This document shows, one piece after another, positions 6,483 to 28,249 of a stretch of DNA of 28,249 nucleotides. Within the stretch, counting starts at the first letter, position 1. Each line of letters opens with the position of its first letter. The position numbers and the translations under genes are program-made. The DNA comes from a virus: positions 1 through 28,249 of IMG/VR virus record IMGVR_UViG_3300036859_000056, one strand, 5' to 3'. The notes beneath the pieces are model-generated. The model did no database searches. It saw nothing but the letters and a program-made list of their open reading frames with translations, and was not told where the DNA came from.

Positions 6483-6497
6483 TACGATGTGTCGTAC
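6482..6497. promoter_or_regulatory. 16-bp inverted repeat, candidate operator
   Basis: GTACGA-tgtg-TCGTAC is a perfect 6-bp inverted repeat around a 4-bp spacer. It begins on the last base of the portal stop and ends immediately before ATG 6498. It contains TACGAT (6483-6488), which could serve as a -10 box. The gene that follows ends in a ribbon-helix-helix domain, and proteins of that class bind short palindromes, so autoregulation is plausible. Confidence 0.4.
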
Positions 6498-23762: not shown

Positions 23763-24271
23763 CCAACGAGCAGGTCGCGCTGTTGCACGCCGCCCGCTCG
23801 CCGAAGCGGCACGCGCATCGGTTCGACGCTACATGGAGTGAAGCGTTGCAGGAATGGGTGCGAAGCGCCTGCGACTTCTGCGGGCTATCACTAGCCGACT
23901 ACGAGGCCCGCCGCAAGCGTGGCCGCACGGCCCTGCGCGCCGGGAAGGACGCCGAGCGCGCCATCGCCAAGACTTACGGTGGCAGGCGGACGGGCCACTT
24001 CGGCGGGCCGGACGACGTGGTGGTCGGCGAGGTTCTTTGTATTCAGTCTAAGGCTGGTGTAGGATGGTTCTCGGAACGAATGTGGAAGGAGCTCCAGAAG
24101 CTCCCCCGGACGGGCGGTCGCATCCCCACCCTGGTTATCAGCGACCGACCAGGGCCGGGCCACAAACGCCGAAGCCTGTCCATTCGACTCACTGAGGATG
24201 ATGTAGCCCTCCTTGGCACCGAAGCGAATCCCGCCAGAGGATCGGTTCTGGACGAAGGTACGGAAGACTGA
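23759..24271 (+). CDS. Holliday-junction-resolvase-like PD-(D/E)XK nuclease
   Basis: Core motifs are [20 protein letters not shown] (Glu at about residue 66, then G-G-R-R), [19 protein letters not shown] (Asp 85/86, Q-x-K at about 96-98), and the strand [10 protein letters not shown]. These are the order and spacing of the PD-(D/E)XK fold as in Hjc-like resolvases and VRR-type nucleases, with Gln-Ser-Lys instead of Glu-x-Lys, a known variant. A CDFC pair near residue 39 may bind zinc. The last 20 residues read over the start of the HNH gene in another frame and look non-native, so the original C-terminus has probably been replaced. It would resolve recombination or replication branches before packaging. 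Confidence 0.7.
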
Positions 24272-24755
24272 TGGCTGCTGGGAATGGCAGGCAGCTAAAG
24301 CCTTTGGCTACGGCCGTTTCGGATGGGCGGCAGGTGATATTCGTCAAGCCCATCGAGTGGCGTGGGCACTCACGTATGGACCTGTTGACCCTGACATCGA
24401 GGTCTGTCACCACTGCGATAACCGAGGGTGTGTTCGTCCGAGCCACCTATTCCTCGGAACACGAGCAGACAACGTGGGAGACGCCAAGAACAAGGGTCGA
24501 CATCCATCTGGCGATACACACGGCAGGCGGAAGCTCGACTCCGAGACGGTCAGACGGATGCGTGTCCTATACGCGACAGGCTCTTACACGATTGAGGGCT
24601 TGGCTGAGATGTTCGGGGTGGCTGGTTCCACCGTCAGCCTCAATGTCCGAGGTCAGAAGTGGCCGAATGCAGGAGGCCCCATCTCGGGAGCCTTCGCCTA
24701 TTGGCCATCTCACAACCGCCGCCGTAGGGACCGGACGACCGGGAGATTCATCTAG
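24213..24755 (+). CDS. HNH homing endonuclease with HTH tail (180 aa)
   Basis: [40 protein letters not shown], then the metal site [20 protein letters not shown] (about residues 61-80), match HNH_3. After a basic linker ([12 protein letters not shown]) the C-terminal half is a helix-turn-helix ([40 protein letters not shown]), as in homing nucleases with NUMOD/HTH modules. The TTG start at 24213 lies inside the resolvase gene (59-nt overlap) and has no good ribosome binding site; the codons are A/T-richer than around it. It is a free-standing mobile endonuclease inserted between two coupled genes. Confidence 0.85.
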
Positions 24756-24767
24756 GCGGCCGAAGCC

Positions 24768-25235
24768 GTGACCCGCGCCTACATCCGGGTTGACCCAGCC
24801 CTGTTCGACAACAAGGTCTTTGAGGACCACTACCCGTTGGGTGCGCTGGCCGCCCTGGTGGGCTGCTTCTGCTATGCCGAGACGCAGCCCTTCCGCGGCA
24901 CCTTCCGAGATGCCGTACTGCTGCGCGCTCTCCTGGGACCAGCCGGTCGATGGGTCAAGTATCTGGTAGAGCACGGGGATCTCATTGAGCAAGCGAACGG
25001 CCAGCTATACATCGACGGCTGGAAGGAATGGCAGGAAGGTGACGTTACGGTCAAGGACCGGATGGAGCGTATCCGCAACCGTAACAAGAACCGTAACGAC
25101 GACCGTAACTCTGACCGTATCCCACCCGTAATAGCGGAGAGCGGGGCGCTGCGGGGCGGTAAGCCGAGAGCGGCGCGCCGTAACACTGGCGCGCCTGTCG
25201 CGCTCTCCGACCTTCTCGGGGAGATGGCACCGTGA
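24768..25235 (+). CDS. replication initiator/replisome organiser-like protein (155 aa)
   Basis: YIRVDPALFDNKVFEDHYPL, GALAALVGCFCYAETQ, RWVKYLVEHGDLIEQANGQL, YIDGWKEWQEGDVTVKDRME, then RIRNRNKNRND. This is the layout of small actinophage DnaD/replisome-organiser-like proteins: a winged-helix core, the W-x-E-W-Q-E-G-D hinge, then a basic Arg/Asn tail. It would bind the origin and recruit the host helicase. The coding DNA for the basic tail contains four ACCGTAAC-type repeats at 12-bp steps, a candidate origin inside the initiator gene, as in lambda O. GTG start 24768 follows the HNH stop by 12 nt; the stop overlaps the next GTG. Confidence 0.6.
   Translation: MTRAYIRVDPALFDNKVFEDHYPLGALAALVGCFCYAETQPFRGTFRDAVLLRALLGPAGRWVKYLVEHGDLIEQANGQLYIDGWKEWQEGDVTVKDRMERIRNRNKNRNDDRNSDRIPPVIAESGALRGGKPRAARRNTGAPVALSDLLGEMAP
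25044..25120. repeat. iteron-like repeats, candidate replication origin
   Basis: ACCGTAAC occurs at 25078-25085, 25090-25097 and 25102-25109 and as ACCGTATC at 25114-25121, exactly 12 bp apart. An exact inverse copy, GTTACGGT, lies at 25044-25051, and partial copies (CCGTAAT at 25126, CCGTAAC at 25178-25184) follow. The spacing is close to, though not exactly, one DNA turn. The codons used (CGT for Arg, AAC for Asn) are constant in the repeats although this genome otherwise favours CGC/CGG, so the DNA sequence itself may be conserved. Confidence 0.6.
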
Positions 25236-25453
25236 GCGAAAAGAAGCTGGAAACCGTGACCATCCGAGGGCTGCGGTATCTCGTCGTCACCCTCCGGGAG
25301 GACGACATTGAGCGCATCGCGCAGAAGGTGGCCCGTCTCATCCGTGATGAGGACCAGGCGCAAGCCGACCGTGAGCTGGAAATGGAGCACCGTCGGCAGG
25401 TTCCCCTAGAGGTCATCGTAGCCACGTCGAAGCTCCGCGAGCAAACCAAATGA
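25232..25453 (+). CDS. hypothetical charged helical protein (73 aa)
   Basis: GTG 25232 overlaps the initiator stop. ETVTIRGLRYLVVTLREDDI is a strand pair leading to a long charged helix (ERIAQKVARLIRDEDQAQA, DRELEMEHRRQVPLEVIVA). The helix probably forms a coiled coil. It could be a partner of the initiator. No family is recognised. The stop overlaps ATG 25450. Confidence 0.6.
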   Translation: MSEKKLETVTIRGLRYLVVTLREDDIERIAQKVARLIRDEDQAQADRELEMEHRRQVPLEVIVATSKLREQTK

Positions 25454-26224: not shown

Positions 26225-26409
26225 GTGGGGCCACCGCCACCAGTCTCAGTTCGTCTATCCGCGAACGGTTGAAGATGTACATGATTGTCTGCCCATGTTG
26301 TGGACAAGCCAGGAAGTCTTACCGCGCCGCTGCGGCCGAGCTGGGCGTCGGCCACGCCATGCTATTTCGCTTCATGGCAGGAGGCTCCCGTATTGAGCGA
26401 CCAACTTGA
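26221..26409 (+). CDS. small protein with zinc knuckle and HTH (62 aa)
   Basis: ATG 26221 overlaps the previous stop. After a Ser/Thr-rich start, MIVCPCCGQARKS holds a C-x-x-C-C-like zinc pair, and YRAAAAELGVGHAMLFRFMA plus GGSRIERPT is a short helix-turn-helix of the kind found in phage Cro-like or XRE proteins (A-A-x-x-L-G-V-x-x-x-x-L-x-R-F). It is a candidate early regulator. Confidence 0.6.
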   Translation: MSGATATSLSSSIRERLKMYMIVCPCCGQARKSYRAAAAELGVGHAMLFRFMAGGSRIERPT

Positions 26410-26461: not shown

Positions 26462-26736
26462 CCACGCCGCGGACGGCAGAGGGACAAGCGCTGATGGATG
26501 CGCCTGCCGTGCTCCTGATGATGGATGGCGAGGGGATTATTGGGATCAACGAAGGCGAGTTGGAACTTTGGATCCTCGCCATCGAAGCCGGGGCGGCGCA
26601 GCTCGACGTGGAGCGGCTGGCGGCGGCGCTACGGACGGTGGATGACGGGATCGGCATAGCCGACCATGCCGCATCAGATTACTACCAGCTCTTTGCCGAG
26701 AAGGTCACCGCCGCCTACGCCAAGGTGAAGCCGTGA
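26458..26736 (+). CDS. paralogous early protein B (92 aa)
   Basis: ATG 26458 overlaps the 22-aa peptide stop. TPRTAEGQALMDAPAVLLMM, DGEGIIGINEGELELWILAI, then AAQLDVERLAAALRTVDDG and a C-terminal helix LFAEKVTAAYAKVKP. It shares T-P-R-T-x-G-x-A-L-M and I-L-A-I-E-A with the 25937 gene and the 31-bp repeat with 25450. A GT2 glycosyltransferase follows with GTGA overlap. The function is unknown. Confidence 0.55.
   Translation: MTTPRTAEGQALMDAPAVLLMMDGEGIIGINEGELELWILAIEAGAAQLDVERLAAALRTVDDGIGIADHAASDYYQLFAEKVTAAYAKVKP
26592..26622 (+). repeat. 31-bp direct repeat, copy 2
   Basis: Identical to 25578-25608; see that entry. The downstream sequence diverges at the next base in the two copies. Confidence 0.9.
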
Positions 26737-27572
26737 TCGTCACTGCCTGTCTTATCTGGTGGAACGAGCGCCCGGAGGACTTGGCGCGGTGCGTGCGTGG
26801 CATGGCGACCATCGCGGACCGCTTGGTGGCAGTGGACGGCGCCTACGCGCGGTATCCGGGTGCGACGAAGGGTTCACCGATTGATCAAGTGGAGGCCATC
26901 GCTGAAGCGGCTAACGAAGTCGGGATCGAGGTTGTGGGCGTGTTCCCGGACCGCCTGTGGGCCGGACAGGTTGAGAAGCGTTCTTACGCACTACAGAAAG
27001 CGGCAGAAGATTCAGATTGGATCGCCGTGGTGGATGCTGACTGGATCATCTCAGGGAACCGTAAGAAGGCTCGTGCTGAGCTCGCCGGCTACGGCGCGGA
27101 CATCGATGTCGTTAGCGTGCCATTCTACACGCCGCCGGGCAACGGTCAGGTGGCGTCGGGCTGGCATAACCGGGTCCAAGATTCTCAGGTGTGGCTTCCC
27201 CATATCTTCCGGGCGTTGCCGGAAATCACCGTCGAGCGGTACCACTGGTACATCGGTGCCCGCAAGGGAAAGCATCTAATCTGGTTGTGGGGGCCGCCCG
27301 GCGAGGGCCGCGCCGTCCTACCGCCGCACCAGCTCGAAGCGCCCTATCTCATCGAGCACATGACCCTGCATCGCACCGAGGAACAGGTGCTCGCCAGCCG
27401 GGCCTTCCTCAATGATCGGGTCATGGTGGTGGGCATGACCGATCAAGAGGATGATCTGCCGGAACTCCCCCGTCCGGTGTTCGACTACGAGACGATCCCG
27501 CTGACCGACTTGGCGGCGGAACGCAAGGCGCGGCGGCGGGCACGGCAGATGCGACGGAGACGCGGACGATGA
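26733..27572 (+). CDS. GT2-type glycosyltransferase (279 aa)
   Basis: GT-A fold features: the N-terminal strand IVTACLIWWNERPEDLARCV, LVAVDGAYARYPG, a donor-side VVDADWIISGNRKKA (the D-x-D-like motif at about residue 99-101), then HIFRALPEITVERYHWYIG with an acceptor-side aromatic patch. The C-terminus is strongly basic (AAERKARRRARQMRRRRGR), unusual for this family, and might bind nucleic acid. It is the last rightward gene. Together with the GT-B enzyme at 305, the phage encodes two unrelated transferases. Substrates could be virion proteins or modified DNA; no nucleobase hydroxymethylase or similar enzyme is present, which argues against DNA. Confidence 0.85.
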   Translation: MIVTACLIWWNERPEDLARCVRGMATIADRLVAVDGAYARYPGATKGSPIDQVEAIAEAANEVGIEVVGVFPDRLWAGQVEKRSYALQKAAEDSDWIAVVDADWIISGNRKKARAELAGYGADIDVVSVPFYTPPGNGQVASGWHNRVQDSQVWLPHIFRALPEITVERYHWYIGARKGKHLIWLWGPPGEGRAVLPPHQLEAPYLIEHMTLHRTEEQVLASRAFLNDRVMVVGMTDQEDDLPELPRPVFDYETIPLTDLAAERKARRRARQMRRRRGR

Positions 27573-28122: not shown

Positions 28123-28249
28123 CGCGTCATCCTCCACCGCGGTCCCTCAACGCGAAGGCACCAACATGTGTGGATAGATCTCCCGGCCGGTATCGCTGCG
28201 GTGATGCCACGAGGGTGCGTCGTCTGTCATCTCTCTCTGTCTGACTATC
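28123..28249. repeat. terminal direct repeat, right copy
   Basis: Identical to 1-127. It should be removed once to obtain the circular genome of about 28,122 bp. Confidence 0.95.

What the first reader, a model, noticed from the sequence alone, without database searches (positions are those of the whole stretch)
25044..25184. Iteron array inside the putative initiator gene
ACCGTAAC is repeated at strict 12-bp steps (25078, 25090, 25102, with ACCGTATC at 25114), with an exact inverse copy at 25044 and partial copies downstream. The gene around it looks like a replisome organiser with an Arg/Asn tail coded by these very repeats. Initiator genes that contain their own origin are known (lambda O). 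Here a single stretch would serve as both DNA-binding tail and origin. With no polymerase, helicase or primase in the genome, this would be the whole replication module.
Basis: partly seen in the sequence, partly recalled or inferred. Interest (0 to 1): 0.7.

Follow-up and report, generated by a model that had tools for sequence, protein, structure and literature searches.

The report
Replication-start repeats hidden in initiator gene
A small phage carries a row of short DNA repeats, most likely its replication start site, inside the gene for its replication initiator; the same repeat core at the same 12-base step recurs in initiator genes of many other phages, whatever amino acids it happens to spell.

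Summary
The array is real and at the stated places. ACCGTAAC lies at 25078, 25090 and 25102, ACCGTATC at 25114, an inverted copy at 25044 and GCCGTAAC at 25177. None of 100 shuffles of the window gave even one 12-bp pair of CGTAAC. It sits in a 155-aa gene (24768-25235) that matches PHROG 3926, 'replication initiation protein'. The decisive evidence is comparative. In four relatives the DNA motif persists while the peptide does not: it is read as RN, or, inverted, as VT, or in another frame. Fixing each protein and resampling codons gives 3.4 CGTAAC copies over the five genes; there are 20. In four further initiator families collected without regard to the motif, GTAAC-core hexamers are 8- to 40-fold enriched over flanking DNA, with a preferred 12-bp step. 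In one phage the repeats run on past the stop codon. So this is a set of DNA sites, most likely initiator-binding iterons of an intragenic origin. The 'Arg/Asn DNA-binding tail' is a by-product. The GC-skew prediction fails, no AT-rich tract flanks the repeats, and protein binding and origin activity are untested. Origins inside initiator genes are known (lambda O). I found no report of a GTAAC/12-bp pattern shared across initiator families.

The parts
24768..25235 (+). Replication initiator gene (155 aa) that contains the array
   Evidence: PHROG 3926 E=3.7e-7, PHROG 2447 E=0.0025; relatives L001 73%, L002 49%, L124 46%, L125 45% identity; profile-profile E=1e-4 to actinophage initiators
24795..25037 (+). 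N-terminal domain (residues ~10-90), helix/strand pattern of winged-helix type; likely DNA-binding part
   Evidence: AlphaFold2 pLDDT 83-93 over residues 11-80; Foldseek gives only weak, non-significant matches, mostly to winged-helix proteins and domains
25044..25051 (-). Inverted iteron (GTTACGGT on +, read Val-Thr)
   Evidence: GTTACG at the same place in L001
25078..25085 (+). Iteron 1 ACCGTAAC (read Arg-Asn)
25090..25097 (+). Iteron 2 ACCGTAAC
   Evidence: also in L001
25102..25109 (+). Iteron 3 ACCGTAAC
   Evidence: CGTAAC also in L001; in L002 the same region holds three GTTACG at 12-bp steps in the opposite orientation
25114..25121 (+). Degenerate iteron 4 ACCGTATC
   Evidence: retained in L001
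25133..25170 (+). Purine-rich GCGG/GTAAG tract downstream of the iterons (AGCGGAGAGCGGGGCGC...GGCGGTAAGCCGAG); possible opening or loading site
   Evidence: corresponding AGCGGTAGCGGTAAG-type repeats in all four relatives; short-period tracts follow the iterons in the other families too
25172..25195 (.). Inverted repeat GGCGCGCC-GTAACACT-GGCGCGCC with an outlying GTAAC (25180) in its loop
   Evidence: folding z only -1.7; weak excess of stems here over all families, p=0.04
25232..25453 (+). Small gene next to the initiator (73 aa, unknown), conserved in L001
   Evidence: 75% identity over 55 aa

Best explanation
The array is the iteron set of an intragenic replication origin. Inferred mechanism: the initiator made by this gene, through its N-terminal winged-helix-like domain, binds GTAAC-core sites that repeat every 12 bp (about one helical turn) in the 3' half of its own gene; the adjacent short-period purine-rich tract is then opened and a helicase, here presumably the host's, is loaded. 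The Arg/Asn tail is what the iterons happen to spell in this frame and serves only as a disordered linker. Shown: the array, its DNA-level conservation, its link to initiator genes. Inferred: protein binding, strand opening, origin firing.
For: (1) In the relatives the DNA motif stays while peptide, frame and orientation change: L002 has GTT ACG (VT) three times at 12-bp steps where the window has CGT AAC (RN); L124 and L125 use further frames. Codon resampling with the protein fixed: 20 observed, 3.4 expected, maximum 9 in 4000. (2) Initiator families collected by N-terminal homology, blind to the motif: F4 CGTTAC/GTAACG 17x and CGTAAC/GTTACG 14x over flanks, the top two hexamers of those counted at least 15 times; F6 9.7x and 8x; F5 15x for CGTTAC/GTAACG; actinobacterial-type family F33 40x and 20x. 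(3) The same 12-bp step: same-strand GTAAC pairs at 12 bp number 56, 20 and 8 in F4, F6 and F5 genes against 1, 0 and 0 in 246, 259 and 107 kb of flanks. (4) CGTAAC arrays across IMG/VR fall, after tail fibres and microsatellites are set aside, mainly in replication-initiation, primosomal and DnaD-like PHROGs; arrays of a scrambled motif do not. (5) In L455 the repeats run through the stop codon into non-coding DNA; L450, L451 and L455 have DnaA boxes just after. (6) Four cultured actinophages with short initiators have other repeats plus a short-period tract in a ~190-bp non-coding gap right after the gene. (7) Lambda and 80alpha have the same layout.
Against: No AT-rich tract near the array (lowest 40-mer in 24.5-25.7 kb is 47.5% GC). 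No GC-skew signal. No DnaA box at the array; the single exact TTGTCCACA is 1.1 kb away at 26299. Many initiator genes lack the motif (14 DUF1376 homologues, epsilon15, most F5 and F6 genes), so it is one of several iteron types. Only four relatives of the window itself. No binding or replication data. The family-wide statistics ignore phylogeny beyond removal of near-identical genes.
Confidence: 0.8

Rival explanations
1. The repeats are operator sites through which the protein represses its own operon, not an origin.
For: Autoregulation through direct repeats is common for initiators (own knowledge); no replication data are at hand.
Against: The sites lie 276-420 bp inside the gene, downstream of any start, and in L455 continue beyond its end. 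Short-period tracts follow them in several families, DnaA boxes follow in three actinobacterial-type loci, and 80alpha has an annotated putative origin at the corresponding place.
Confidence: 0.1
2. Selection acts on the peptide: a basic RN-rich tail that binds DNA, with the repeats a coding by-product.
For: In the window and L001 the array is read as RN in one frame.
Against: RN is replaced by VT in L002 and L124; all frames that avoid a stop are used in F4; codon resampling excludes coding alone; repeats pass a stop codon in L455.
Confidence: 0.03
3. A partition (parS-like) or packaging site that happens to sit in the initiator gene.
For: parS direct repeats lie next to repA in some mycobacteriophages (PMC7157519).
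Against: No partition genes among the Pfam matches of the window; the same core in initiators of many phages and, in three loci, with DnaA boxes beside it.
Confidence: 0.04
4. Sites for a shared host protein rather than for the phage initiator, which would explain one core in unrelated initiators.
For: F4 shows no detectable profile similarity to the window family (E=0.3) yet has the same core and step.
Against: Window family, F5 and F33 are linked by profile (E=1e-4, 1e-4, 2.5e-8), so a common recognition domain can explain much of it; hosts span Actinobacteria and Proteobacteria; other initiators have other repeats in the same position.
Confidence: 0.1

Closest known systems
Phage lambda ori inside gene O (O-some origin)
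   Same: Repeated initiator sites in the middle of the initiator gene, followed by an asymmetric tract (PMC7466680). Synonymous iteron changes abolish replication in the lambdoid Stx phage P27.
   Different: Iteron sequence, spacing and length differ; no AT-rich tract and no gene P (helicase loader) found here; no match to the O-like PHROG.
Staphylococcus phage 80alpha gp20 with annotated putative rep_origin
   Same: Initiator gene with intragenic repeats (ACCGTTAACGGT) and then short-period repeats; related half-site ACCGT.
   Different: Repeat spacing 30 bp, AT-rich tract, a DnaC-like loader next door.
Actinophage 'replication initiation' / RepA-like proteins (PHROG 2447/3926; Gordonia EMoore, Microbacterium Blett, Propionibacterium Anatole)
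   Same: Distant sequence relatives (profile E=1e-4); EMoore has GTAAC at a strict 12-bp step.
   Different: Several use other repeats or keep them in a non-coding gap after a shorter gene; Blett has helicase-loader and helicase genes beside it.
DnaT-like 'primosomal protein I' initiators (Xanthomonas Olaya, E. coli ZX5, Pseudomonas VW-6S)
   Same: GTAACG pair at a 12-bp step plus an inverted copy in the gene, then an AGAGAAG or GAGGAA tract.
   Different: No detectable profile similarity to the window protein; motif read as GN or VT.

Membership tests
PHROG 3926/2447 replication initiation proteins | Profile match | tested here: met
   E=3.7e-7 and 0.0025; L002 E=0.0046 to 3926; L001, L124 and L125 give no match to 3926/2447 on their own
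PHROG 3926/2447 replication initiation proteins | Initiates replication | not testable with these tools
   needs experiment
Phage_rep_org_N (PF09681) | Score above the gathering cut-off | tested here: not met
   13.8 bits against 23.3
Lambda O-type intragenic origin | Regular direct repeats inside the initiator gene | tested here: met
Lambda O-type intragenic origin | Repeats conserved as DNA independent of codons | tested here: met
Lambda O-type intragenic origin | AT-rich unwinding tract beside the iterons | tested here: not met
   region 57-68% GC in the window family; a purine-rich tract instead
Lambda O-type intragenic origin | Helicase loader (P-like) gene next to the initiator | tested here: not met
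   no such Pfam family in 45 ORFs
Lambda O-type intragenic origin | Initiator homologous to O | tested here: not met
   window protein matches only PHROG 3926 and 2447 at E<=1, not the O-like PHROG 678
Lambda O-type intragenic origin | Initiator binds the repeats and replication starts there | not testable with these tools
   needs EMSA/footprint and marker frequency
Iteron-type origins in general | DnaA box near the iterons | tested here: inconclusive
   one exact TTGTCCACA 1.1 kb away (26299); boxes just after the repeats in L450, L451, L455

The most novel reading that the evidence does not exclude
Many distantly related or unrelated phage initiators share one origin code, a GTAAC core (often GTRAC) on a 12-bp lattice written through their own coding sequence in any frame and either strand. 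It would be the cause of the RN/VT/GN-rich linkers, and the short-period tract after it of the REEKRREEK, DTDTDTD or DRTGQDRTGQ segments, of these proteins, so that such peptides mark origins that can be mapped from sequence alone.
Probability: 0.6. Interest if true: 0.8.

Novelty: new variant of a known kind. Interest (0 to 1): 0.68.

Why it matters
For most phages the replication origin is unknown. A recognisable core, step and downstream tract inside initiator genes would let origins be called from sequence in many actinobacterial and proteobacterial phages, including cultured ones (EMoore, Olaya, ZX5, VW-6S) in which the claim can be tested directly. It also explains otherwise puzzling low-complexity peptides as passengers of DNA sites.

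Tried and rejected
tblastn of the window protein and of L125 against cultured phages: no match. Genome-contig scan with the window family: no relative. DUF1376 homologues in bacterial genomes: no array, so the motif is not general to that family. Foldseek and sequence search against PDB: nothing significant. GC skew: no signal. The hairpin at 25172-25195 as a strong element: only weak support. GTTACG in a paper on PLE origins: only a primer. Arrays of CGTAAC in tail fibres (GNVTGNVT) and TG-type microsatellites: separate causes, removed. TP901-1 rep and r1t orf11: no GTAACG/CGTAAC sites. SPP1 was not in the collection under the accession tried. Literature searches found no report of the GTAAC/12-bp pattern; only open-access PMC text was searched, and Weigel and Seitz 2006 (cited in PMC7466680) could not be read.

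Full report
What is there. The gene at 24768-25235 encodes 155 aa. Its 3' half holds ACCGTAAC at 25078, 25090 and 25102, ACCGTATC at 25114, an inverted copy at 25044 and GCCGTAAC at 25177. Shuffles of the window never give a 12-bp pair of CGTAAC. The protein matches PHROG 3926 'replication initiation protein' (E=3.7e-7). AlphaFold2 gives a confident N-terminal domain (pLDDT 83-93 over residues 11-80) and a disordered tail; Foldseek finds no significant PDB match, the weak ones being mostly winged-helix proteins or domains. The genome is complete, with a 127-bp terminal repeat. It encodes head, tail and HNH genes and a PHROG exonuclease, and no polymerase, helicase or primase recognised by Pfam.

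DNA or peptide? In frame, CGTAAC reads Arg-Asn and its reverse complement GTTACG reads Val-Thr. L001 (73% identical) keeps RN; L002 (49%) has three GTT ACG at 12-bp steps instead; L124 has GTTACG three times plus CGTAAC in other frames, including a perfect TACCGTTACGGT-GGGG-ACCGTAACGGTA pair; L125 has copies in two frames and both orientations. With proteins fixed and codons drawn from each contig's usage, 3.4 CGTAAC copies are expected over the five genes; 20 are found, and 4000 simulations never exceed 9. The conserved object is the DNA.

Is it general? I collected initiator genes by N-terminal homology only. F4 (DnaT-like, 50 non-redundant genes): GTAACG 244 copies, 17x the flanks, and CGTAAC 212, 14x, ranks 1 and 2 among hexamers counted at least 15 times, with every stop-free frame in use. 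F6 (52 genes): 9.7x for CGTAAC and 8x for GTAACG. F5 (20 genes): 15x for GTAACG. A fifth family from actinobacterial-type viruses (25 genes; PHROG 2447 and 3926 match all 14 members scanned, so it is in the window's own superfamily, profile E=1e-4) gives 40x and 20x. Same-strand GTAAC cores prefer a 12-bp step in these families: 56, 20 and 8 such pairs in F4, F6 and F5 genes against 1, 0 and 0 in 246, 259 and 107 kb of flanks, and several times more than protein-preserving simulations give. In F6 24 bp, twice the step, is as common, and in F4 steps of 7, 5 and 11 bp are frequent too. The extended core is CGTAACG.

Control. After tail-fibre repeats and microsatellites are removed, the leading PHROGs are primosomal, replication initiation, DnaD-like and replisome organiser. 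Arrays of the scrambled GCTAAC are found in 92 stretches, and their leading PHROGs are tail-fibre assembly; replication initiation appears in 3 weak matches.

Repeats outside the gene. In L455 GTAAC copies continue past the stop codon with a 12-bp step (3415, 3427); L451 and L450 also have copies after the stop; all three have a DnaA box 109-150 bp after the stop. In Sonali, Anatole, TripleJ and Barkley26 the initiator is only 121-134 aa and is followed by a 189-198-bp non-coding gap with other short repeats and a short-period tract. The module can therefore lie in or after the gene, which speaks for an origin.

Second element. Downstream of the iterons lies a short-period tract: AGAGAAG in F4, CAGATACAGA or CAGAAC in F5, GGACA in F6, AGCGGTAAG-like in the window family. 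Short-period self-similarity is above background in all four (0.51-0.59 against 0.41-0.44), and T-poverty is clear in F5 and F6, slight in F4 and absent in the window family. It resembles the asymmetric AT-rich tract of lambda, but in the window it is GC-rich. A following inverted repeat is only weakly supported.

Comparison with known systems. Lambda's origin lies in the middle of gene O, with iterons and an AT-rich tract; synonymous iteron changes in the lambdoid phage P27 abolish replication (PMC7466680). 80alpha carries an annotated putative origin in its initiator gene with ACCGTTAACGGT repeats. The window works like these but is not a lambda-O member: no O homology, no AT-rich tract, no P-like gene. 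Cultured phages with the same GTAAC pattern are Gordonia EMoore, Xanthomonas Olaya, E. coli ZX5 and Pseudomonas VW-6S; epsilon15 and others lack it.

Limits. Binding and origin use are inferred. The motif is not universal among initiators. Relatedness of sequences was handled only by removing near-identical genes. F4 is not detectably homologous to the window family, so whether the shared core reflects common descent, convergence or a host factor is open.

Noticed in passing
1-127 and 28123-28249: Exact 127-bp direct terminal repeat; the record is a complete genome of 28,122 unique bases.
   Followed up: yes
24213-24755: HNH endonuclease with a resolvase-type HTH ends 12 bp before the initiator gene; other HNH genes at 6489, 18418 and probably 3273.
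   Followed up: partly
26299-26307 (-): The only exact TTGTCCACA (DnaA box) of the genome, 1.1 kb downstream of the array, beside its most AT-rich stretch (~26200).
   Followed up: partly
299-1522 and 26733-27572: Glycosyltransferase-like genes near both ends of the record (adjacent on the circle); the second judged from its sequence only.
   Followed up: no
L096:2591-4630: A primase-polymerase-like protein whose gene carries the same CGTAAC array (VTKPVT...VTGGVTGNVT), so the pattern may not be confined to winged-helix initiators.
   Followed up: no
L420, L421, L426: Relatives of the F4 initiator (epsilon15, PSA-2T, BUCT711) lack GTAACG but share a SASxADxxRTREEKRRE-like segment, perhaps another repeat type in the same place.
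   Followed up: no
L457, L459, L460, L463: Non-coding ~190-bp gaps after short actinophage initiators hold different repeats (GCATTGCTC, GGTAAGCAA, TTAGCA, ATGCG) and then short-period tracts.
   Followed up: partly
L003, L011, L035 and others: Tail-fibre-like proteins with GNVTGNVT repeats also yield CGTAAC arrays at 12-bp steps; a source of false positives.
   Followed up: yes
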